From assembly GCA_012976225.1 (NCBI GenBank), contig JAAVVG010000002.1, positions 1,798,001 to 1,862,000 of the forward strand: DNA of 64,000 bases. The letters run 5' to 3'. Positions within the stretch are counted from its first letter, which is position 1; the number at the start of each line of letters is the position of its first letter. Under the pieces are notes generated by a model. That model was not told where the DNA came from, did not search any database, and saw only the letters and a list, made by a program, of their open reading frames with translations. Source of the DNA: Golubevia sp. BC0850. Lineage: Eukaryota; Basidiomycota; Exobasidiomycetes; Golubeviales; Golubeviaceae. Made by a program: the position numbers and the translations under genes. Below are positions 1,297 through 35,994 of the stretch, one piece after another.

Positions 1297-2645
1297 ATGT
1301 CAGAAGGACAAACAATTCAAGTCAGCAACATTGCTTCAAGCACAACTCAGAAGGGATTGGAAGAATTCTTCTCTTTTTGTGGAACTATCTCAAGCTTGAA
1401 CTTGGAGAAAGAGGCTGATGGATCTGCTCAGAGAGCAACTGTCAAGTTCGACAAGAGCAGCGCTGCCTCTACTGCTGTCATGTGAGTAGATATGATAGGG
1501 TTAGATCTTTCTCTGATGAATTGGGCGGTACGAGTAGAACCTGGGCCAGCTGGAAGATGGGGAAGGTCCATCATGCAGCATGCACCTTCATCCCCTTGTC
1601 AAACCCTCCATTCCACCTCAACTTCTCACCTTTGCAGTTCCTCTCTGACCGCTCTCACTAACTTCCAATATCTCCGTTCTCAATTCAGGCTCAACGGTGG
1701 AACTCTAGACGGCTCTCAGCTCTCGGTCACTCTACCTGGCTCCTCCTCTATTTCTCACACAGCTGATTCCTCAGACTCAATTGCCTTGGGTCAAGAAGAC
1801 AAGCCAAGGACAGCAATCGTAGCAGAGTATCTAGCTCATGGATATGCTCTTTCAGACGACATTACCAAGCGTGCCATCGATCTAGATCAAAAGCATGGGC
1901 TCTCCAATAGGTTCAAGTCTTATCTATCCACCTTGGATCGTTCTCTCGGCGAGAGTCTCTCAAAGGCTTCCTCAAGTAAGATGACAGAATCAAATGAGCA
2001 TACTCCTTCAGGTCAAGCTGCTTCGGAAAGTGTTACTGAGAAGAACGCAAGTATGGCTCCAGTTCCAGGTGCCAGCCCAGCTGATCTTGGTCCAAAGACT
2101 ACTACTGAGGTTCCCACCTCTACTTCCATTCAAGAACCTAGTCTAGCTCGTCAAGTTCAAAAGAAAGCTAATCAAGTGCTTGAACGTCCAGATGTGAAGG
2201 AGAAGACTACTTTTGCTTGGACCAAGTTGACTGAGGTGAGTTGGGAAGTTGCGAGTTCTCGGAATGGTGGAGTGGGTCAGAAGGAATAGAGTTAGAGACT
2301 CTGAGGCTGATAGATTACCCTTTGTTGACTTCATCTATTGAATTCCAACAGTATTACAACGCCATCGCCAATCATCCTCGTATCCACAGCTTCTACTCGA
2401 ACGCCTCCAAGACTGTTTCTGACGTTCACGAGGAAGCCAAGCGCATTGCTGTAAGTTCCTTCGTGTTCTATCTCTCTATCCCGGAAACTAGACTTCGACT
2501 CATCTCTCTTTTGTCTGTTGCATTTTACAGGAAGAGAAGAAGCGTACTGGTAATGCTTCAGCTGGAGCTGCAGGAACTTCAGTCCCTTCAGTCTCTCAGA
2601 TGTCAGCGCTTCCACTTCTACTACTTCTACTCTTCTCTAGTATAG
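1297..2645 (+). CDS. vip1: Vip1-like RRM protein
   Basis: This is an RNA-recognition-motif protein of the S. pombe Vip1 type (not the inositol kinase Vip1 of budding yeast). The RRM fills roughly residues 5-75, with the opening IQVSNIASSTT and the RNP-like segment ATVKFDKSSAA. It is followed by the family's conserved EDKPRTAIVAEYLAHGY block and a C-terminal helix ending HEEAKRIAEEKKR. My exons are 1297-1481, 1689-2235, 2352-2450 and from 2531 on. No stop codon follows in this frame before the next gene's start at 2600. If a possible intron at 2550-2640 (GTAATG donor, pyrimidine-rich CTCTAG acceptor) is removed, the protein ends ...KRTV at 2645 with 284 residues, close to the family's usual end. 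Without that splice it reads into the nucleobindin-like protein. Family assignment is firm; the 3' end is not. Confidence 0.8.
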
Positions 2646-4322
2646 TGATTCCAGCTGCTGCTCATGGTGGAGCTGAGATGAAACCAGCTGAAGTCGCTGG
2701 AGAGAAGCCTCATCCAGCCGGTCAAGAAAGTTACGTTCAGAAGCACATGGCTAGTGAGCATCACATTGGTGCTTTCGACATGGGAAGTTTCTTTGCTCTT
2801 CATGATTTGGACAGAAACGGAATATTAGATGTGAGTAGTTTCGACGGACGTGGTTCTCCTTCCTCTCACTCTAGAGTAAATCGAGCTGACATTCGATCTT
2901 TTCTCTTGATCTACTTTCAATAGCGCTCTGAGATCGAAGCCATCTACGGAGTTCATCACTCTACCTCTATCAAGCAGAGTGACAACTACGAAGTCCACGA
3001 TGCTAAGGCCGAACACATTGTGAAGGAAGTTCTTCGTCGTCTCGATAAGAACGGAGACAAGGTTTTGACCAAGGCCGAGTTCGTCGCTGGTGGAGCTGAT
3101 GGTCTTCCAAGCTTTGAGCAGTACGGAAAAGGTGTTCTAGGTCATCACTACGGTGAGTTAGATGCTCGGAATCGAGGAAGAAGAGCTCATCGAACGTCTG
3201 CTTCGCTTACTGATCTGTAGCAGTTCTCCCTGTTCCTTCTCAATTCCTTTCTCTCTTCTTCAGATGAGGAATCCGAGTACTTTGTTCACCACGAAGAGAT
3301 CTACCACAACACTCCAGAAACTCAAACCGACGAAGCCTACACTCATCCAGAAGATCTTGATCACTTTGCCCACCACGACAAGATCGAGAAGGAGGAAGAA
3401 ATCCGTGAACGTAAAGCCGAAGGAATGCCAACGATCGAACAAGAGGAAGCTGCCAAGAAGAAGGCTGAGGCCGAAGGAAAGGAGTACGTCTCACCGTACG
3501 AGAATCAAATGGATCCAAAGAAGGTGGCTGAAGCCGATGCTGCTCAACAGCCCGACGCAGGTTACGCTGCTTCCGAAGCCAAAGCTGGTTCTCATGTTTT
3601 CAGAACTCCAGAGGGAGAACATGTTGTCAAGACTCTTGAAGAGAAGCACTTGGAAACCTTGGAGAAACATGGTCTTCAACAGCAGCGTGGAGAAACTTTG
3701 GAAGGTTTCAATCAGAGAATGCAGGCTATCGATCTATTGAAGGCTCAGATCGCCAGAGATCGTGGAGTGGATCCAGCTGACGCCAACAAGGCCAACGACT
3801 TCACTTCAACTGATAAAGATACTTATCCAGTCGCTGGATCTCCAGCTGTTGGATCGAAAGAACATTTCGAGCAAGAGAAACTGAAACAAAAACCAGGTGA
3901 AAGCGATGCAGACTTCAAGAAGAGAATCGCCAACAGCAAATACTTGGCTGCAACTAGACCTGACTTTGGCTCTGGAAACAAAGGTTTCGCTAGACCTCAG
4001 GATGATGCCGATAGGCTTAAAAAGGGTGCTCCTTACAAGGTGAGTTCCTGGAAGCGGGAGAAAGAAAAGAAGATCCGGCCCCACTCGACATCATCTCTCC
4101 CCCTCTCTCTCCAAGCTGACCTTCCTATCAAAAATCTCGAATCACTGACGTTCTACCCAGTATCCTCCTATCCAACCTAAAAATGAGCAGTATCGTGTCA
4201 AAAAGCAGAGTTACTTCGTGAGTACTTCTGAAACTTTGGTGGAAAGGTTGATCGAGCACAAATTCTGACTTTTCATTGCCTTCGCCCTCTCCTCTCTTCC
4301 AATCTACCAGGGAGAGTTTTAA
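2600..4322 (+). CDS. Secreted EF-hand protein, nucleobindin/Ssp120-like
   Basis: This 434-residue protein begins with a signal peptide (MSALPLLLLLLFSSIVIPAA) and carries two EF-hand loops, DLDRNGILD near residue 70 and DKNGDKVLTKAEF near 120. Glu/Lys-rich helical and His-rich stretches follow (YFVHHEEIYH, HFAHHDKIEK), as in nucleobindins and yeast Ssp120, calcium-binding proteins of the ER/Golgi lumen. Exons are 2600-2830, 2924-3152, 3264-4039, 4161-4217 and 4311-4322; the last encodes only GEF and the stop. The start codon lies in frame with the upstream Vip1-like gene and inside its candidate last intron, so this gene has no intergenic promoter. It must be transcribed from within the Vip1-like gene or made as part of a fusion. 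The start at 2600 was chosen because the signal peptide begins there. Confidence 0.82.
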
Positions 4323-4324
4323 TG

Positions 4325-4690
4325 TGGCTTGTCAGGCGCTTTTCTAGTTTCTCAAAGCTTTCTTTCCAATTTTACATTACTCGAAATCCAAGATTCCCAC
4401 GTATACACTCTCTTTCACCGAAATCGCTGTAAATGATCCCGAATTTGGTTGTATCGTATGCTTTGATCGAGAACGTCTTGATTCATCTCGAAGCTGTTCT
4501 TGCTTGTATTTCCAGATCGAGACTTTGAGCGCCTGCAATAGCTGACGTTCGGAGAGAGGATGGGGAACGAATTTGCGAGGCGAAGAGCGACTGCGCCGTC
4601 GAAAGATTAGAAAGCCAATCAGAGGTGTAGGTGCAGATCCTGAAGAAGCTTAGGCGACGCTCAGAAGGAAGAGGAAGTGAAGACAAGAGG
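4325..4690 (-). pseudogene. Decayed F-box/LRR family fragment
   Basis: The minus strand here aligns over about 270 bases, at roughly 80-85% by eye, with the tail of the right-hand F-box gene (about 20783-21010 on the plus strand). Shared landmarks are CTATTGCAGGCGCTCAAAGT, GATCAAAGCATACGAT and GGTGAAAGAGAGTGTA. Translation gives LFASQIRSPSS against LFASQIRGPSS in the right copy. No long frame survives, so I call it a relic of the same family. It lies just downstream of the left F-box gene, in the same orientation, as its counterpart does on the right. Confidence 0.6.
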
Positions 4691-5962: not shown

Positions 5963-7051
5963 CTACAATTGAAGATTAATCGTCCTGGGAGATGTAGAGA
6001 TATGATGCTGGAGGAGCTCTTCTGGATTGAGTGCTGTACCGACTAGCTCTAATTCTTGAAGTTGACCTCCGATCCAACTTGAGATAGATTTCCATGGAAT
6101 TCTATAGCCGTATACCTTCAAGTTTAGCTTCTTTAACCCTTCTACTAGTACTGTCTCATTCGGGATCTCTAGCGTCTCTGAAGCAGCCTGGTCAACATCA
6201 TGTAAATTGAAGAGAACTGAAGAGAGGGAGTCAAGATTGGGGAACTTCATCGAAAAGTTCCAAAGTCTGTACCCCGTCTTGAGGGTCAAGTTAGAGTGTA
6301 AAAGCTCTTCTAAGACTCTAGGAGCTAAATTGATGATATATTGATTCGGTTCCTGCCAATTGTTGGGACCCGATAAAAGAAAGCCCTGTGCCCAGAAACC
6401 TCTTGCTTTTTTCATAACACCTAAGACATCGGTAAGAGCTGTAGCTATTACGATCGGCAAACGATTGTTGATAAAGTCGAAACTCTTTGACCCCAATTCT
6501 TCTCCCCCTCCCCTTTTAAGAATGAAAGTGATGGGAGTGACTATCTTGAATTTTCCTCGATGTTTTGATGAGAAGATTGGATCCAGAAAGAGTATAAGGA
6601 AATCTGACGTATCCTCGGCCGTTCTCTTGTCCATCAATAAAAAAAAAACCTCCTTCAGATTTGTTTGTGACCTGATGAGATAAAGTAAATCATCACCCTC
6701 CTCATCTTCCCAATTGGAGTCTCCCACAATCTTGGCTCTAACGTATTCTTCCCAAGTACTGGATAAATTGAGAGACAACTTGCGTACATCATTATCACAT
6801 AGCGATGCGAGGCGTTTAAAATCACACTCGGGATAGTCTCGAAATCCTAAATTCGACAAATCGATCTCTCTGTGCAGAGCGGGATTAGCGTTGATTGTTT
6901 CTCTCCATTCTTTAGAGATGGCGCTTGATCTAGCAATGGATTGAGGTGAGAGGGATGAGACAACCTGATAGAATGTCTCTAAAGGAAGAGCCAGCTTTGG
7001 ATCGACTAGACGGTCTTTGACTATGCTGCTGCTTGCTCTCCATGTTGACAT
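5963..7051 (-). CDS. F-box/LRR-like protein, left copy of inverted duplication
   Basis: The protein has 362 residues from the first ATG (MSTWRASSS); the open frame extends further upstream only from a TTG. The N-terminus reads LALPLETFYQVVSSLSPQSI and then AISKEWRETINANPALH, an F-box-like helix set, and the rest contains leucine-rich segments such as LQELELVGTALN. Such proteins usually recruit substrates to SCF ubiquitin ligases, but the F-box call is by pattern only. Residues up to AASET are identical to the right copy at 19903-21006; beyond that the two differ completely. Downstream LRR-like sequence lies out of frame, so this copy may itself be truncated. Confidence 0.6.
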   Translation of the reverse strand: MSTWRASSSIVKDRLVDPKLALPLETFYQVVSSLSPQSIARSSAISKEWRETINANPALHREIDLSNLGFRDYPECDFKRLASLCDNDVRKLSLNLSSTWEEYVRAKIVGDSNWEDEEGDDLLYLIRSQTNLKEVFFLLMDKRTAEDTSDFLILFLDPIFSSKHRGKFKIVTPITFILKRGGGEELGSKSFDFINNRLPIVIATALTDVLGVMKKARGFWAQGFLLSGPNNWQEPNQYIINLAPRVLEELLHSNLTLKTGYRLWNFSMKFPNLDSLSSVLFNLHDVDQAASETLEIPNETVLVEGLKKLNLKVYGYRIPWKSISSWIGGQLQELELVGTALNPEELLQHHISTSPRTINLQL

Positions 7052-7312
7052 GAAGAGATCTCTTGGAAGAATGCTAAGGTGGCAGGAGGAAGAAGAACCG
7101 ATGAGGATAACGATGGTCGAAAGCAAGGATTGAAGGGATGAAAAATCTTCACCTCATGCGCGCTTCGTTCGCTCCGAGTCGTTTAATCTTATTGCCTTCG
7201 CACGCACGAACTCCTCCTGAAATCGATGTTTCTATATTCTCCGAACTCTTATTCTGATCCCCGCGGCAGTCAAGCAGTCACACTTAAAATTTGCTTTAGC
7301 ATTTGAAGAGGA
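6172..7312. repeat. Inverted duplication, left arm (1,141 bp)
   Basis: This block is the reverse complement of 19642-20782. Both arms are 1,141 bp, so there is no length change between them. I found only two mismatches, both in the upstream non-coding part, and none in the coding part at protein level. It covers the promoter and first three quarters of the F-box-like gene. Beyond 7,312 similarity fades into a few gapped words such as TCGCGTCGACT. The inner edge at 6,172 is sharp. Confidence 0.85.
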
Positions 7313-7967
7313 GACGGTGGTCATCTCGCAAGAGTCGACGCGAAAAAATGGAAGGGGCGAGACAGGTTGAGGTGAAACGAGTTGGCTTTTGAGGCTCTTG
7401 CATATTTATCAATGAAATTTAAAGACAAAGGAAAGAAGAAAGGTTTCTTCAGAGGGAGATGGAAGCAAGGGCGGAGGCTTCTCCAGAACGTCTCAAGCTG
7501 TCTCAAGCCTTATCTTCAAACTCCTAAATCTTTTCTCCTTCAGAACCAGTCTTGGTCTAAAGAATCTACCATCTAAGATGGTGTTGTTCCTATGCCCGCA
7601 TCGCACTTCATCGGCTATCAGTGGCAACGTGGCAATTTGATGGGAGCGATAGTCAACAAATCGATCCTAGTTTCCCAAAACCACGAGGAAGAAAGGTAAA
7701 AGTGTGTCAATGGGTTTTCAATTGCTACAGAATAAAGAAGGAGAAACAAAAAACGAAAGAAACATAACAAAAGAAAAATAACAAAGTAACAAAGATGACC
7801 TTTACGTGCTGTTGCGAAAATGAGAAAGAATGATGACGAATTTTGTGTATGAATGCGAGGTGGGTGTGTTGAAAGAAAGCCATAATGATGCGTGTGCCCA
7901 ATAAAGAGAAAAAAAGTTTCCACCCTAACGAAGAAGAAGAGTCACAATCCTCTATCCCACCCACATC
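7313..7967. other. Intergenic, no recognised gene
   Basis: This spacer contains the probable 3' untranslated region of the minus-strand gene that ends at 7,968. Frames of 60-100 codons on both strands are low-complexity (Lys-rich or Phe-rich) and carry no family signature. Confidence 0.4.
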
Positions 7968-15888: not shown

Positions 15889-16822
15889 ATGCGTTTCATC
15901 AACCTACTCTCTCTAACCCTTCTATCAGCAACTCCATTACTCTCTTCAGTTTCAGCTCAAGCAGATGGTGCTCCCGTAGACCCCAACGCAACTTGTGATC
16001 AAGCAACTCTAGATTCCATCACTACCTGTCTAGGACAAGTTTACACCGATGAATCCGCTCGTGATGGAGGTCCTTGTACCTCTTCTGACTCTGCTGAGAA
16101 TTGGGCTTGTATTTGTAACGTTCAGGTTAGTAAGATGGGTGCTCCTCCCTCTCAAGGCCAAAGCCACTCGACAGCTGACCGACTCTTCTTTGGTGTATTT
16201 GGTTTCTTCTTTGATAGCTTGGATTAACTCAAGGAGGATGTTGGGCACCTTGTCCAGGTTTGGCTCCAAAGGAGGATCAAGACTATTTCGATCAAAACTG
16301 TAATGGTCAACATTCTGGTGTAACCCCTTCAAGCTATACTGGAAGTCCCATAACTACTACTGTTCCAAGTGGAGCTAGTGGAACTGCTGGAACTGTTGGA
16401 GCGTGAGTATTTAACGTTGAAGCTTGTTGGAGAGGATGAGGTCGGGTGGGATAGGACAGAAGGGAATGAGACCTCTTGGCTGTTTCGGGGATGAGCTCGA
16501 AAGGAGTGTTAACTGAAATTAGAGAGCTCAGAAGACTGTTGGAAGGAACTGTGGAAGTATAACAGTAGAGTGACTGACCGATTCTCTCCTTACTCTTCCC
16601 TTGTATTTCAGCTCCTCCGTCCCTTCCACCACTGCAGCCTCTCCAACCACTTCCGACTCCTCAGCTTCTTCCTCTGTCTCCAACACTTCCTCTGCTGTTC
16701 CCTCTTCTACCACTGCCAATCAAACCGGAACTCCAGCTGGAAACGACAACGGAGCTATTAAGGGAACTGCTCCTCTGCTCACTTTGGTAGCTGGATTGGG
16801 TTTAGGTGCTCTTCTTCTTTAG
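15889..16822 (+). CDS. Putative GPI-anchored Cys-rich surface protein
   Basis: Three exons (15889-16125, 16218-16402, 16612-16822) encode 210 residues. A signal peptide (MRFINLLSLTLLSATPLLSS) is followed by a domain of about 110 residues with eight cysteines (DATCDQATLDS-type start, WACICNVQ, GGCWAPCPG, QNCNGQ). Then comes a Ser/Thr-rich stalk and a hydrophobic tail ending GLGLGALLL, preceded by small residues suitable for GPI attachment. This layout is typical of fungal wall or plasma-membrane proteins. The cysteine spacing does not let me assign CFEM or another named domain. The stop at 16,820-16,822 directly follows the hydrophobic tail, which supports the GPI reading. Confidence 0.75.
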
Positions 16823-18049: not shown

Positions 18050-19641
18050 TCCTTCTTTCTTTTTCGGCCCCTTCGCGGTCTCATCATATTTTTTCCCTTT
18101 GTCTCCTTCCTTCCACTTTTACCATTTCAATTTCAACTCCAAGATGCAAACTATTTAGAAAACACTCTTCATACTCTGCAAAACCTTGGTTGCATCAAAG
18201 AACATCAAACCTCAGACCATGCACTTCTGTGCACCAGACAAGCAATTTCGTTTTTGGACCTTCTCATGACAAGAATACGACTTATTTCAACAGCAGAGTT
18301 TGTCTTTCCTGCAGGCACTTCTTCTTCCCGTCCAACACACAGCACTTCCAACATCTTAGACTTTTCGAGTCTAAGTAGCAGGGTTCTGGTTTTCAAAGTC
18401 ATCAGTAACGATTTGGTTCGTGGTAGTTGAATGAGAGACAAATGGAAGAGAGGGAAGAGATGGGGAGAGAAGGAAAGTAACAGGTGGGCAACTCTGCACC
18501 TCTTTTGCTACATTCCCCCCATCTTTATCCTTCACGTCACCCATTATTTTTCAATGTTCCCCCTTTAAACTAAATTTTCCCTTTTGCATTCCCCTTTTCA
18601 ATTTCATCACCAATCGTTTTTCAAACTTTCAACCCCTTAAACTCCCCTTTTTAAATTTTTAAACTCAAACTATTCAAACTTAATACCTCAAACCTCAAAA
18701 TGTTGAAACCTTTAATATTGTAGATCTTGGACTTTTAGCTTTGTATTCCATGGTAGTTTTGTCTTTGGGTCCTTGTGTATCTAGGTACTTGACCCCCGTG
18801 GAATTCAATTGATTCGATTTAGAAAAAAAAATCAATCAAATCCCTCATTCCTTGCGCTCTTTTCTTCACTGATTTCTGCTGCTGAACTTGCTCATTCCCT
18901 CTTGCTGACCCTCTGAATACTCATCTCTCTAACTGACATCACTTAATAACCACCAACCTCTTACTGACCTTGTCTCCTCTCTTACTAACTTTTTCCCCTC
19001 CTACTCCCGTTCTATCCTACACGAGTGGAGAGTCTCAATCTTGACCAAGATTAAGGGCACACCACCCAACATTATGCAATGACTGCAGAACGAAAGTCTC
19101 CATCCAATATTATGCAATGACTACAGTCAATGATAGTTCAGTGATTTGAGCTCCAAGCTTGGGCTTGAGCTGGAAGCAAAACTTGAACGAATCATGGAAA
19201 GTTTGTAGCGAAGGCTGTCCAGGTATTTGAACCAGCAATTGAGCAACGGATCTTTGGTTTCCAGTCTTGGATCAATCTTGAACTAAGTCTTGAATCATTC
19301 CTGGGCCTCCAAGCTTGGAGCAACCTTGCCCCAGCCACCGCCTAACGATTGGAGGCTTAAATCGTTGGCTCAAGATATGTTATGTTAGAGCCACAACACG
19401 CTTAACCAAAGAGAGAAGGAAAGAAAGAAAGAAGGGAGCTTGCCTACCTCTTAATCGACTAGTATTTTGCTTCCAACCCCCTCTTCCCGTCGACAAAATG
19501 TGAATTTATGTGTCTCTGTTCTTTCACTTGCTTTCTTTGAATGGCCTCTCATCATTTCCGGTTTCGCGAAGATCCGGAGTCCAACTCGTGTAATTAAGGT
19601 TTATTGCCACTTCAGTTTCTCGCGTCGACTTGCCTGCCACC
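18050..19641. other. AT/pyrimidine-rich spacer with short tandem words
   Basis: No gene is supported in these 1.6 kb. Bases 18480-18960 are dominated by C/T- and A/T-rich low-complexity sequence. At about 19066-19088 and 19113-19135 a 23-base word containing ATTATGCAATGACT is repeated with two changes, and words such as CTCCAAGCTTGG recur nearby (19151, 19309). This suggests a small local duplication. Plus-strand frames to 136 codons just after the tRNA have no recognisable content. Confidence 0.45.
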
Positions 19642-20782
19642 TCCTCTTCAAATGCTAAAGCAAATTTTAAGTGTGACTGCTTGGCTGCCGCGGGGATCAG
19701 AATAAGAGTTCAGAGAATATAGAAACATCGATTTCAGGAGGAGTTCGTGCGTGCGAAGGCAATAAGATTAAACGACTCGGAGCGAACGAAGCGCGCATGA
19801 GGTGAAGATTTTTCATCCCTTCAATCCTTGCTTTCGACCATCGTTATCCTCATCGGTTCTTCTTCCTCCTGCCACCTTAGCATTCTTCCAAGAGATCTCT
19901 TCATGTCAACATGGAGAGCAAGCAGCAGCATAGTCAAAGACCGTCTAGTCGATCCAAAGCTGGCTCTTCCTTTAGAGACATTCTATCAGGTTGTCTCATC
20001 CCTCTCACCTCAATCCATTGCTAGATCAAGCGCCATCTCTAAAGAATGGAGAGAAACAATCAACGCTAATCCCGCTCTGCACAGAGAGATCGATTTGTCG
20101 AATTTAGGATTTCGAGACTATCCCGAGTGTGATTTTAAACGCCTCGCATCGCTATGTGATAATGATGTACGCAAGTTGTCTCTCAATTTATCCAGTACTT
20201 GGGAAGAATACGTTAGAGCCAAGATTGTGGGAGACTCCAATTGGGAAGATGAGGAGGGTGATGATTTACTTTATCTCATCAGGTCACAAACAAATCTGAA
20301 GGAGGTTTTTTTTTTATTGATGGACAAGAGAACGGCCGAGGATACGTCAGATTTCCTTATACTCTTTCTGGATCCAATCTTCTCATCAAAACATCGAGGA
20401 AAATTCAAGATAGTCACTCCCATCACTTTCATTCTTAAAAGGGGAGGGGGAGAAGAATTGGGGTCAAAGAGTTTCGACTTTATCAACAATCGTTTGCCGA
20501 TCGTAATAGCTACAGCTCTTACCGATGTCTTAGGTGTTATGAAAAAAGCAAGAGGTTTCTGGGCACAGGGCTTTCTTTTATCGGGTCCCAACAATTGGCA
20601 GGAACCGAATCAATATATCATCAATTTAGCTCCTAGAGTCTTAGAAGAGCTTTTACACTCTAACTTGACCCTCAAGACGGGGTACAGACTTTGGAACTTT
20701 TCGATGAAGTTCCCCAATCTTGACTCCCTCTCTTCAGTTCTCTTCAATTTACATGATGTTGACCAGGCTGCTTCAGAGACGC
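19642..20782. repeat. Inverted duplication, right arm (1,141 bp)
   Basis: This is the reverse complement of 6172-7312, equal in length, with two mismatches seen (in AGAGTTCAGAGAAT and TGCTTGGCTGCC). The outer edge at 20,782 is abrupt. Up to GAGACGC the arms agree exactly; the next base on is unrelated to the left gene but related, at about 80%, to 4325-4600. The two arms enclose about 12.3 kb. Confidence 0.85.
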
Positions 20783-21006
20783 CGCCACTCTTCGCCTCGC
20801 AAATTCGTGGCCCATCATCCAGCTATTGCAGGCGCTCAAAGTCTCGGACTTGGAAAAGCACGCACAAGCAAGAACAGCTTCGAAAGGAATTAAGAAGTTG
20901 TCGATCAAAGCATACGATGCAACCAATCTCGGAATTTACAGCAATTTCGGTGAAAGAGAGTGTAAATTGGATTTTGAGTAATGTAAGGTTGGTAAGAAAG
21001 CTCTGA
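19903..21006 (+). CDS. F-box/LRR-like protein, right copy with replaced C-terminus
   Basis: This 367-residue frame starts at MSTWRASSS. Up to AASET it is identical in protein to the left copy, including the F-box-like LALPLETFYQVVSSLSPQSI segment. The last 75 residues (from PPLFASQIRG to NVRLVRKL) are new and basic, and come from reading sequence homologous to the relic at 4325-4690 in whatever frame was open. That tail lacks the Leu-rich pattern of the left copy, so I think this is a chimeric and possibly non-functional gene. The N-terminal region may still be expressed, because the promoter side is duplicated too. Confidence 0.5.
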   Translation: MSTWRASSSIVKDRLVDPKLALPLETFYQVVSSLSPQSIARSSAISKEWRETINANPALHREIDLSNLGFRDYPECDFKRLASLCDNDVRKLSLNLSSTWEEYVRAKIVGDSNWEDEEGDDLLYLIRSQTNLKEVFFLLMDKRTAEDTSDFLILFLDPIFSSKHRGKFKIVTPITFILKRGGGEELGSKSFDFINNRLPIVIATALTDVLGVMKKARGFWAQGFLLSGPNNWQEPNQYIINLAPRVLEELLHSNLTLKTGYRLWNFSMKFPNLDSLSSVLFNLHDVDQAASETPPLFASQIRGPSSSYCRRSKSRTWKSTHKQEQLRKELRSCRSKHTMQPISEFTAISVKESVNWILSNVRLVRKL

Positions 21007-21690
21007 GAAGCTAGAAAGGCGTATGCCATGCCATATTGAGACTCTCTGGCACAATACATACTTGAAAGATATTGACGGGGACCTCGATCTTTGAATGACT
21101 GTTGATGAGTCTAAGCCTTCTCGGTCCTTGCTCTCCAGCTTCCAAGCTCACCACGAGTGGGCCCTCAATCTCGACCTCCTTCAAGGCTGAGAACCTCCCC
21201 AGAGCATGTTCAGTGAGCTTAAGAACTAGCTGAAGTGAATCATTGGCCGTAGCTTCGTCAATCAGTAGATGTAGTTCTCTGAGACCCTGAGGGTATTTCT
21301 GGAATTGAGGAGGACTTGAATTAGTTGATGATAACCGAACTCTTTCCGTTCCCCTGCTACATGATTGATGTGGCAAAGTTCTTTCCAGAAGCTTGATAAG
21401 TTGAGAGAGAGAGACCTTGACGAGCTGATGAAGAGACAGAGATGAGAGTCTTCCGAAGTGATGAATGACCCTCTCCATCTCGCTTCCCAACCCCAAGCTT
21501 AGTAGATCAATCTCCCTGTGAAGAGCTGGATTGGTGATGATTGAAGTTCTCCAGTCTATGCAGATGGCGCTTGAGGTGGAAGGAAGGAGATAGAGTGGAA
21601 ACCCATCTCTAGCGGGAGTGCGAGCGTTGGATCGATTAGATGGTTTTGTCTGTTGATGTTGCGGTCCATGCTGTTTGACAAGTTCAGTTG
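21007..21690 (-). pseudogene. Decayed third member of the F-box/LRR family
   Basis: On the minus strand the sequence parallels the start of the duplicated gene. MDRNINRQNHLIDPTLALPL corresponds to MSTWRASSSIVKDRLVDPKLALPL. In a second frame NPALHREIDL appears again, followed by SLGLGSEMERVIHHFG and leucine-rich segments (LSSLSLHQLVKVSLSQL, LRELHLLIDEA). The reading frame is broken between the two parts (a stop follows QAPSA). It is convergent with the right F-box copy and far more diverged than the duplicated block, so it is an older family member. Confidence 0.6.
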
Positions 21691-32762: not shown

Positions 32763-33540
32763 TTAATCAGAAGAATAAGCTGAACTAGCCACAGCTAGGT
32801 CCGCATTGAACTTTGCCAAAAGAGCGTTAGCATTGGCCTGTTGGTCTGCTGGAGCTTTAGAGACCAAAGCATCTCCGAAGGTCTTGATAGAAGCTTGAAT
32901 AGCAGCAATATCTTTCTTGGCAAGTCTAGCGACTCCAGAGCTCTTCAAACCTGGCTCAATATCACTAAGGAGAAAGCAAGGAGGCAGGGATGGATTGGAT
33001 TAGCTTCAGGTTACGAGGACCGAAGGAGAAAGGTTACTCACGCAAGTTTTTGAGTTGCGGCCTTCGCGGTGGTCTCTGTCCCTTGAAGCGATTTGATAAT
33101 AGCTTGAGCATCGCTTTCTGAAACTGAAGCAGTGAGTCCGTTCACGTCGGTGGTGGATTGTTGGAGCTGCTTGTCGAGAGCGCGAGCGTCTCTGTCGATG
33201 TCAACTGCTGCGAAGAGATCGTTACCGTCAGTGGCTTGGAGATCGGTGTTGAGCCTGAGAGGCAGAAAGACAGAGAATGGGAGGCAAAGAAGAAACAGAA
33301 GCGGAGACGAGAATTTGGGGGAGGGGGAATCAGAACGGAAGCGAAGATGAGGGCTTAGGAGTGCTAAGAAGAAAAAGCGGGGTCGCAATAATCCGTCTTC
33401 ATTCTTTCTTGTTTTTTAAGGTTCACTTACTTGGTTACAGCACTGTCGATGGCCTTGATGTCGCTCTTGACAGCGGCAATGTCAGCGCTTACCAGAGCGA
33501 GAAAGCTAGCGAGAAGGATGAGAGAGCGTGAGAATTGCAT
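32763..33540 (-). CDS. HsbA-like secreted surface-binding protein, copy 1
   Basis: Three exons (33431-33540, 33042-33254, 32763-32964) encode 174 residues with a signal peptide (MQFSRSLILLASFLALVSA). The mature part is an all-helical, Ala-rich domain of the hydrophobic-surface-binding protein A/galactomannoprotein type. It has DIAAVKSDIKAIDSAVTKLN, then AVDIDRDARALDKQLQQS, SDAQAIIKSLQGTETTAKAA and DIAAIQASIKTFGDALVS. In Aspergillus, HsbA-type proteins coat hydrophobic surfaces and can recruit hydrolases. The intron positions and phases match copy 2 (after VTK, phase 2), showing common origin. The two genes are divergent, 971 bp apart. Confidence 0.75.
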
Positions 33541-34511
33541 CTTGAGTGGGATAGGTTCGGTTGGTGGACAAGAGACAAAGTTGTAGTTGGAAGTAAAGAG
33601 TGTGTGGGACGGAGGGGAAGTAGTTCGAGGCTTGTTTAAGATCTTGTCTTTAAAGCATGCGACCTTAGACGATTCCCAATTCTCGGACTTGCTTCTCATC
33701 CTGGCTAATTTGCTGTACATACATACACATACATGGTTGTCCGCATTTCGACTCGATTGGAACTGATTAGAAATCCGTGAAACGAAGGATGCAGGCTAGA
33801 AGGTTTCTGAAAAGAGGTTGAAAGCGACCTTCAGTCCATCAAAAAAGGGGTTGATCAGAAGAACCAACAGGCTGCTCCTCCCAAACACTGCTCGTCAACG
33901 CGTCAACTGGCACTGCTGGTCAAAAATCTCGTAGATTAAAATGCAAGATCTTCGATCAAGGGAGGGAAAAAGCGGAAATGATCACTCTTTGTGCATCACC
34001 AGGTACCGGTCGTACTGAAATGCGGGGCAAGCACCGGAATCAGTGATCGTGCGTGCAATCGTCTCTAATCAAGATCATCAGATTGGCTCAACTTTCTCTA
34101 TCTCACAGCTTCAGGCCTTCAGGCCGCCAGGCCCCAGGTCAACGACGAATTGAAGGTCACGACGAGGAAGCTCACCTGCTGATTTGACCAATTGGGAGAC
34201 GAGTCAAACTCTGCAAAGGTGAACGTGAAAAGGTGACCTTCTTACCCTCTTTGCAGACATGTCTGGGACCAGATGGCGGATCCACTAGAAGCTTTGAGCT
34301 AGAAGATCGCAAGCTTTCTTGCGTTGATTGCACAAATCGTCGAACAAATAACCGGAAGTCGACAGCACCAGTATTTCAGGCTCTTTAGGCCCCCTTTCTC
34401 AAATCTCGTCCTATATAAGATTGAATCTGAAAATCTTCACGTACTTCCTACCTCTCCTCTCAACGTCTCACTTGCATCTCTCAAGTCCTCTCGCTGCCAC
34501 TCTCTTTCAAC
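33541..34511. promoter_or_regulatory. Shared divergent promoter region of the HsbA-like pair
   Basis: This 971-bp interval separates two divergent paralogues and contains no credible ORF. The stretch 33715-33735 has CATACA repeats, and near 34,100 there is CAGGCCTTCAGGCCGCCAGGCC, a partly palindromic GGCC-rich patch. The last 120 bases before 34,512 contain TATATAAG (about 34413) at a plausible TATA distance from the start. I infer co-regulation but no factor can be named. Confidence 0.5.
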
Positions 34512-35280
34512 ATGAAGTTCAACTCTATCGCAATCGCAACCTTTGCCACTTTGGTCACCTGTTACGCTGCTGACATCACTGATCTAACTTCCAAGATCAC
34601 TGCTCTGTCTACTTCTGTCACCAAGTGAGTCTTAGTCTCTGTCTCAACGACTCATGCTCTCCGCCGCTAGGGCTCCGTTTCACTAATTACCTTTTTCTCT
34701 TCGGGTTTCAAACTTTCCTTTAAAGACTTAACAACGATCTCCAAAAGTTCGACAGCAAGTCTGGATACTTTGACGCTCTTAAAATCGATGTTGATGCCTC
34801 AAACACTAAGGGAAGTGAGTTTCTTCTCAGTTCTCCCCTTTCCGCTTTCCTCTACAGACAACTGCTGACAGATTTTTCTCTTTTCATCAGCTATCAATGA
34901 CTGTACCACTTCATCAGATATGCTAGATTCTTTCACAGATGACAATACCGACGCAATCTTGAACCAATTGAAAGGGGTCGAAGTCACAGTTCGCGCTGCA
35001 ACTCAACGTCTCGCGGATGTCGCTCCCCGTTTCAAGGCTTTGGGAGTAGCCGGTATCGCTAAAAATGATGTCGCTAGCTTGAAGAGTGCCACAAACACCT
35101 TCGCCATCTCCATCGCCAGGAGAACTCCTGTGAGTTGTCAACACAAACACGCTCCTGTGACTCCCTCTCTCTGACAGTCCCCTCCCTTTCCTTCTACATT
35201 CCCAGGATGACAAGCTCGAAGAAGCCGCTGAACTCTTGGGTTTATACGGAGACGACTTCAAAATCGCGGCCGCCCCCTAG
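34512..35280 (+). CDS. HsbA-like secreted surface-binding protein, copy 2
   Basis: Four exons (34512-34624, 34726-34814, 34891-35129, 35206-35280) encode 171 residues. A signal peptide (MKFNSIAIATFATLVTCYA) precedes DITDLTSKITALSTSVTKLN, which aligns with copy 1. Further matching blocks are FDALKIDVDAS, DAILNQLKGVEVTVRAATQR and LADVAPRFKALGVAGIAKND. Unlike copy 1 it has an extra intron near the end, and its C-terminal helix is shortened and ends GDDFKIAAAP. The sequences have diverged well apart from the helical pattern, so the pair is not a recent duplication. Confidence 0.75.
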
Positions 35281-35994
35281 TAAGTATTCTGTGTGAACGT
35301 CTTTCTAGACATGTGAAATTATCGAGGAACTTTTTTCGAGACCCTACCTTACACTTCCCCCCTTTTCTCCTTCTTTTGTCTCTCTCTCTCTCACACACAC
35401 TCTCTCTCATCTTCTCAGCGCCTAAACGCCGAGAACTTTGAGACTTTCACTTGAATGCTGGATCCCTTCTTGTAATCACTCTTCTACTTTCTTTATCCCT
35501 TGAATGCTTGTTTTACTTCCGACGCTCTCACGTTCTCACTTCTCACGTCTCGTTTGAACCCGCGACGACTGATAGTCATTTCCACCTTCAAAAAGCTCAG
35601 CTCTTGTTGACTTCGGACGCTCTCGCGGACGACCAATTCGATTCAAGATTGGACTGGCTTTGCTTACAATATGTACTGCACGACTGAATATATTGGAGAA
35701 GGGAAATGGTGAACGAGACGGGAAAGAAGGCTTTGCATCACAGCTTGGCATCAAGAAGAAGATCGGAAAGGGAAAGGTTTTGAGGAGAAGTCGAAAGGGA
35801 ACGTACGGATGATTAGATTCAGGTAATAAAGTTTGAGAAGGAAAATAGAGAGGTTGAATGTATGTGAGAGTTCTTTTGGTTCGACTTGATGGTCTAAGGA
35901 TATCAAATGAGATTGAAAAGACCCGTTTGAGCTTCTTGTATGTTGACAATTCCATTGCTTGATTCTGTAGACGGGGATGACGTTTTCAGGCCCT
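35281..35994. other. Intergenic, HsbA-like 3' end to shugoshin 3' end
   Basis: These 714 bases lie between two convergent genes. A minus-strand frame of 139 codons (35536-35955) has no motif and probably lies in the shugoshin 3' untranslated region. A (CT)/(CA) rich patch occurs at about 35380-35410. Confidence 0.45.

What the first reader, a model, noticed from the sequence alone, without database searches (positions are those of the whole stretch)
2531..2830. Vip1-like RRM protein reads in frame, without a stop, into a signal-peptide-bearing EF-hand protein
Seen: exon 4 of the Vip1-like gene opens at 2531 and stays open through ATG 2600 into the signal peptide and EF-hands of the nucleobindin-like protein. 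Family knowledge: Vip1-type proteins normally end shortly after the ...EEKKR helix, and nucleobindins are separate secreted proteins. Either the locus makes a 734-residue fusion with an internal signal sequence, or an intron at 2550-2640 (whose body contains the second gene's start codon and signal peptide) is spliced to end Vip1 at 2645 and the second protein comes from an internal promoter. A splice choice that toggles between a cytosolic RNA-binding protein and a luminal calcium-binding protein would be unusual.
Basis: partly seen in the sequence, partly recalled or inferred. Interest (0 to 1): 0.75.

Follow-up and report, generated by a model that had tools for sequence, protein, structure and literature searches.

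The report
Fungal RNA-binder/EF-hand in-frame fusion gene
In this fungal-type genome a gene for an RNA-binding protein has no stop codon of its own and reads straight into a gene for a calcium-binding-type protein whose signal peptide-like start ends up buried in the middle; the sequence favours one fused gene over the proposed splice switch, but no RNA data or related genome was available to show what the cell makes.

Summary
Eight exons (1297-4322) give one 734-codon frame: an RRM protein (residues 1-300) followed without a stop by M301, a hydrophobic signal-like segment and a nucleobindin-like EF-hand protein (434 aa). The join lies inside one exon (2531-2830). Openness alone proves little: 42% of random positions have 23 open upstream codons. 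ATG 2600 has a good start context (77th percentile of 69 predicted starts), so an extra internal promoter, or a formerly separate gene, remains possible. Best reading: a gene fusion making a precursor with an internal ER signal, perhaps cut by signal peptidase into both parts, comparable to fungal mitochondrial tandem precursors such as Arg5,6. ER entry and cleavage are inference. No fungal relatives could be reached, so conservation and assembly error remain untested.

The parts
1297..1481 (+). exon 1: start codon and first part of the RRM
1689..2235 (+). exon 2: rest of the RRM and middle of the RNA-binding protein (an in-frame alternative acceptor would start it at 1638)
   Evidence: alternative
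2352..2450 (+). exon 3: YYNAIANHPRI...EEAKRIA, C-terminal part of the RNA-binding protein
2531..2830 (+). exon 4: carries the join: end of the RNA-binding protein, linker, signal-like segment and first EF-hand, all in one frame
   Evidence: log-odds 8.15; 0 of 1088 intron windows and 0 of 4945 intergenic windows as high
2600..2671 (+). in-frame ATG and hydrophobic signal-like segment MSALPLLLLLLFSSIVIPAAAHGG (cleavage after AAA is inferred)
   Evidence: start context
2643..2645 (+). TAG that would end the upstream protein only in a shifted frame (intron 2550-2640 spliced, intron 3 retained, or acceptor 2591 used)
2924..3152 (+). exon 5: second EF-hand
3264..4039 (+). exon 6: long charged C-terminal region
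4161..4217 (+). exon 7
4311..4322 (+). exon 8: ...GEF and TAA stop

Best explanation
It is one fused gene. Transcripts that start at the upstream promoter and are spliced at the good sites carry a single 734-codon frame. Translation makes the RRM protein first; when the hydrophobic segment (residues about 301-321) emerges it acts as an internal ER signal, the EF-hand part enters the ER lumen, and signal peptidase may cut after ...IPAAA, leaving the RNA-binding part on the cytosolic side (anchored by the spent signal, or freed by intramembrane cleavage) and a soluble luminal calcium-binding protein. Shown: the single frame, the coding character of the linker, the lack of a convincing intron at the join, no second copy found in the genome. 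Inferred: that the fused mRNA is the main product, ER insertion, and cleavage.
For: No stop between the two parts, join inside one exon. A self-trained gene finder picks the continuous model. The linker is coding in the fused frame and in neither other frame (8.15 against -9.97 and -0.37). Of the donors between 2531 and 2640 the best (2602) ranks at the 6.8th percentile and no intron starting there ranks above the 1.4th percentile in total, best acceptor for each. At E up to 1 the 734-aa protein matched only this locus (7 exon matches; only the best candidates are scored), so no separate normal version was found elsewhere in this assembly. Of 86 predicted proteins only this one had a lone internal hydrophobic segment next to a Met; the 4 other flagged proteins had 3 to 5 segments. 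Fungal precedent for a tandem precursor cut inside by a targeting-signal protease: mitochondrial Arg5,6, demonstrated; Etp1 and Rsm22-Cox11 carry the motifs in silico (PMC8847149, one passage read).
Against: ATG 2600 sits in a start-like context (77th percentile of 69 predicted starts, 93rd of 721 internal Met codons), as expected if the EF-hand protein starts there on its own. The signal segment itself is neutral by coding score (-0.45). Further down exon 4, donors 2645 and 2754 are possible though weak (totals at the 10.7th and 27.8th percentile); they lie behind the join and would alter the EF-hand part. The finder can merge neighbours: it joined an unrelated upstream model to a secreted-type protein at 15889 through a weak intron. 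No transcript, protein or orthologue evidence. One search for internal signal peptides in fungal fusions listed 5 papers, none holding the phrase.
Confidence: 0.5

Rival explanations
1. Two overlapping products: the upstream promoter gives the fusion (or a poorly used transcript), and a second promoter inside the upstream gene (introns 2-3 or exon 3) gives a normal secreted EF-hand protein starting at ATG 2600.
For: Start context of ATG 2600 is good; the signal segment is where an N-terminal signal would be; the abstract of Gordon et al. says that genes within polycistronic transcripts of Agaricomycetes are also independently transcribed (PMC4503453).
Against: No free intergenic space for a promoter: the 248 bases upstream of 2600 are exon 4, intron 3 and exon 3. 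Among 38 same-strand neighbour pairs predicted in 264 kb the smallest gaps were 9, 132 and 149 bases, median 671.5 (gaps rest on predicted genes).
Confidence: 0.27
2. Sequence or assembly error: the real locus has a stop or an intergenic stretch near 2550-2600 that is missing here.
For: Both halves look like complete proteins of separately known kinds; only one assembly is held and no reads.
Against: The frame is coding on both sides of the join and through the linker, so an error would have to remove sequence without disturbing the frame. A single wrong base at one former stop codon is not excluded.
Confidence: 0.13
3. Splice switch: intron 2550-2640, or another choice at intron 3, ends the upstream protein at TAG 2643-2645.
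For: Splicing 2550-2640 does give an early stop. Acceptors 2591 and 2599 score higher as sites than the normal acceptor 2530 (6.24 and 6.34 against 3.87), and donor 2451 is weak (14.9th percentile). Intron 3 is open if retained.
Against: Donor 2550 is at the 0.7th percentile, and 1 of 281 introns lacks both +5G and +6T; no good branch point within about 60 bases of 2591 or 2599; the linker is coding. The intron set was self-predicted, which biases against odd donors, and the branch-point search reached only about 60 bases.
Confidence: 0.07
4. The full fusion is stable and uncut: a membrane protein with an RNA-binding cytosolic domain and a luminal calcium-binding domain. (It shares the fused gene with the best explanation, so the odds overlap.)
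For: Same sequence facts as the best explanation.
Against: The segment ends in small residues (AAA), typical of a cleaved signal (recalled rule, not tested with a predictor).
Confidence: 0.1

Closest known systems
Mitochondrial tandem (composite) precursors of fungi: Arg5,6, and by motif Etp1 and Rsm22-Cox11 (PMC8847149, one passage)
   Same: Two proteins in one frame with a targeting signal in the middle that could let one protease release both.
   Different: The signal here is ER-type; the first half would stay in the cytosol; cleavage is not shown.
Polycistronic transcription units of Agaricomycetes (PMC4503453, abstract and two sections)
   Same: Two adjacent same-strand genes that may share one transcript.
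   Different: Those have multiple stops in all frames between the ORFs and an average spacing of 364 nt; here there is no stop in the fused frame and no spacer.
Nucleobindin / Ssp120-like luminal EF-hand proteins
   Same: Two EF-hands that match nucleobindin 1 (1snl, E 1.2e-5) after a signal-like segment.
   Different: The signal is internal in the frame; the long charged C-terminal region has no match in the calls. The Ssp120 likeness is recalled.
Vip1-type RRM proteins of fungi (recalled name)
   Same: N-terminal RRM (Pfam E 5.2e-9).
   Different: No stop after the C-terminal part; no Vip1 sequence was available to compare.

Membership tests
Nucleobindin-like EF-hand protein | paired EF-hands | tested here: met
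   EF-hand_6 E 1.5e-6 (62-84) and EF-hand_1 E 3.5e-6 (110-132), both over cut-off; the pair model EF-hand_7 28.1 bits, under its cut-off 30
Nucleobindin-like EF-hand protein | sequence match to nucleobindin over the EF-hand domain | tested here: met
   1snl NUCB1 is the best of 4 hits, E 1.2e-5, residues 58-133; diacylglycerol kinase alpha at 2.5e-5 is close behind, so the match is not specific
Nucleobindin-like EF-hand protein | N-terminal signal peptide | tested here: inconclusive
   signal-like segment present but 300 codons into the frame; only hydrophobicity was computed, no signal predictor
Vip1-type RRM protein | N-terminal RRM | tested here: met
   PF00076 E 5.2e-9, residues 9-73
Vip1-type RRM protein | Vip1-specific C-terminal region and a stop soon after it | not testable with these tools
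Tandem precursor with internal targeting signal | two proteins in one continuous frame | tested here: met
Tandem precursor with internal targeting signal | cleavage at the internal signal | not testable with these tools
   needs protein data
Polycistronic transcription unit (Gordon et al. 2015) | separate ORFs with stops in all frames between them | tested here: not met
   no stop in the fused frame between exon 4 start and 2830
Alternative-splicing switch at 2550-2640 | usable donor and branch point | tested here: not met
   donor -1.33, 0.7th percentile of 281; best branch point score 2.08 against 4.08-6.8 in the gene's seven introns

The most novel reading that the evidence does not exclude
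A nuclear gene that delivers a cytosolic RNA-binding protein and a luminal calcium-binding protein from one precursor by an internal, cleaved ER signal peptide, fixing their synthesis at one to one and placing the RNA-binding half at the ER surface: a cellular counterpart of viral polyproteins cut by signal peptidase.
Probability: 0.25. Interest if true: 0.7.

Novelty: new variant of a known kind. Interest (0 to 1): 0.42.

Why it matters
If the fusion is real and cut, it extends the tandem-precursor principle known from fungal mitochondria to the ER and ties an RNA-binding protein to the early secretory pathway. If it is only a fused gene model, it is a clear warning about how such models arise in compact fungal genomes.

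Tried and rejected
Relatives: viral contigs with the N-terminal 209 aa of the EF-hand part (no pattern match) and with the RRM protein (21 stretches matched a pattern, none a relative), genome contigs with a 48-aa EF-hand core (96 stretches, none a relative). These collections hold viruses and prokaryotes, so the misses say nothing about fungi. Rfam and tRNA scans of the window found nothing.

Splice switch 2550-2640: scored and rejected. Alternative acceptors for intron 3 at 2591, 2599, 2606, 2640 and 2645: scored (totals at the 2.5th to 6.4th percentile), kept only as weak rivals. Screen for internal signals in the 86 predicted genes: the first version listed nothing, not even this gene, because of its position rule; the second listed 6 segments in 5 proteins; it missed the merged model at 15889, so it is not exhaustive.

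Papers: PMC4503453: abstract and two sections; PMC8847149: one passage; PMC5607100 and PMC7291304: one reference-list passage each; the Emp47-Ssp120 paper itself is not held. The listings of searches (15 of 135 papers; 20 of 84; 6; 6; 20 of 140,777, too broad to mean much; 4; 5; 12) showed no title or abstract start on this fusion; that covers only the open-licence library and those words.

Slips mended on the way: several exon ends and the end of exon 5 were off by a base or so, and were corrected; scripts crashed and were rerun.

Full report
What is there. The window lies on contig 22 of a 25.77-Mb assembly in 64 contigs. At 1297-4322 on the + strand, eight exons with GT-AG introns give one frame of 734 codons followed by TAA. 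Residues 1-300 hold an RRM (Pfam E 5.2e-9). Residues 301-734 begin with Met and a run of hydrophobic residues, then two EF-hands whose best match among solved structures is nucleobindin 1 (1snl, E 1.2e-5; diacylglycerol kinase alpha follows at 2.5e-5). The 734-aa protein matched no other place in the genome at E up to 1 (only the best candidates are scored). The name Vip1 and the likeness to yeast Ssp120 are recalled, not tested.

The join. It lies inside exon 4 (2531-2830), 23 codons after the exon begins. Nothing in the fused frame stops it. By itself this is weak evidence: 42% of random positions in 264 kb of this contig have 23 open codons upstream, and predicted start codons have a median of 23.5 open codons upstream (here 36). 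The stronger evidence is composition. A three-periodic Markov model trained on 85 other predicted genes gives the linker 8.15 in the fused frame and -9.97 and -0.37 in the other two. No intron window (0 of 1088) and no intergenic window (0 of 4945), each allowed its best frame, reaches that, and 3.2% of 7398 coding windows do. The linker is therefore most likely read as protein in the frame that leads into the EF-hand part. The signal segment itself is neutral (-0.45 for 2600-2640) and the next 60 bases are coding again (8.49).

Splicing. A gene finder that trained itself on the 264 kb (86 genes, 281 introns) chose the continuous model, differing only in taking acceptor 1637 instead of 1688 for intron 1. 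Its donor lacks G at +5 and T at +6; one of 281 introns lacks both. The intron set is self-predicted, so unusual donors are under-represented and these percentiles are partly circular. Intron 3 (2451-2530) is the lowest-scoring of the gene's seven introns (21.4th percentile in total), and acceptors at 2591 and 2599 score higher than 2530 as sites, but they lack a good branch point within the roughly 60 bases searched. Acceptor 2599 would keep the frame and still fuse the proteins; 2591, or retention of intron 3, would end the first protein at TAG 2643-2645. Weaker alternative donors further down the exon (2645 and 2754, totals at the 10.7th and 27.8th percentile) lie behind the join.

Start codon at 2600. 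Its context ranks at the 77th percentile of 69 predicted starts (of 86; 17 low-scoring, edge or focal ones left out) and at the 93rd of 721 internal Met codons; the context of ATG 1297 ranks at the 39th of the starts. This fits an EF-hand protein that starts, or once started, at 2600. It keeps alive an internal promoter and also the idea that a separate gene was fused by loss of a stop and spacer.

How it most likely works. A transcript from the upstream promoter with the favoured splicing encodes the fusion, because the upstream protein has no stop of its own. The simplest way for both proteins still to work is that the inner hydrophobic segment acts as an ER signal and signal peptidase cuts behind it. 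In fungal mitochondria a tandem precursor is cut inside by the matrix processing peptidase (Arg5,6 demonstrated; Etp1 and Rsm22-Cox11 carry the motifs in silico; PMC8847149). For the ER this is inference. The polycistronic units of mushroom fungi are a different thing, having stops in all frames and an average spacing of 364 nt (PMC4503453), though there too the genes are also transcribed independently (abstract).

Limits. There is one assembly, no reads, no RNA, and no fungal relatives in the collections on hand. An assembly or base error near the join cannot be excluded. The finder can merge neighbours, as it probably did at 15889, so its agreement is support and not proof. The confidences of the rivals overlap: the uncut fusion shares the fused gene with the best explanation, and an internal promoter can exist beside it.

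Verdict. Observation confirmed; fusion favoured; splice switch not supported. Interest is moderate: unusual and easy to test, not yet shown at the RNA or protein level.

Noticed in passing
6172-7328 and 19626-20782: Inverted repeat of 1157 nt, about 99% identical, 12.3 kb apart, carrying copies of an F-box gene on opposite strands (F-box Pfam match tested on the first copy only); the segment between could flip.
   Followed up: partly
4312-4544 and 20820-21046: The last exon and 3' flank of the fused gene match, inverted at 81%, the flank of the second F-box copy: seemingly an older part of the same duplication, far less alike than the 99.8% arm beside it, perhaps through gene conversion.
   Followed up: partly
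1638-1688: Alternative in-frame acceptor for intron 1 that would add 17 residues inside the RRM; it scores higher than the acceptor at 1688.
   Followed up: partly
15889: A secreted-type protein (MRFINLLSL...; GPI-like end is my reading) that the finder joined to an upstream model through a weak intron ending exactly at its ATG; probably a merge error.
   Followed up: partly
32763-33720 and 34512-35425: Two HsbA (hydrophobic surface binding protein A) genes side by side on opposite strands (Pfam E 1e-17 and 4.5e-17).
   Followed up: no
2451-2530: Intron 3 has no stop in the frame entering it, so its retention would give a hydrophobic tail ending at TAG 2645.
   Followed up: partly
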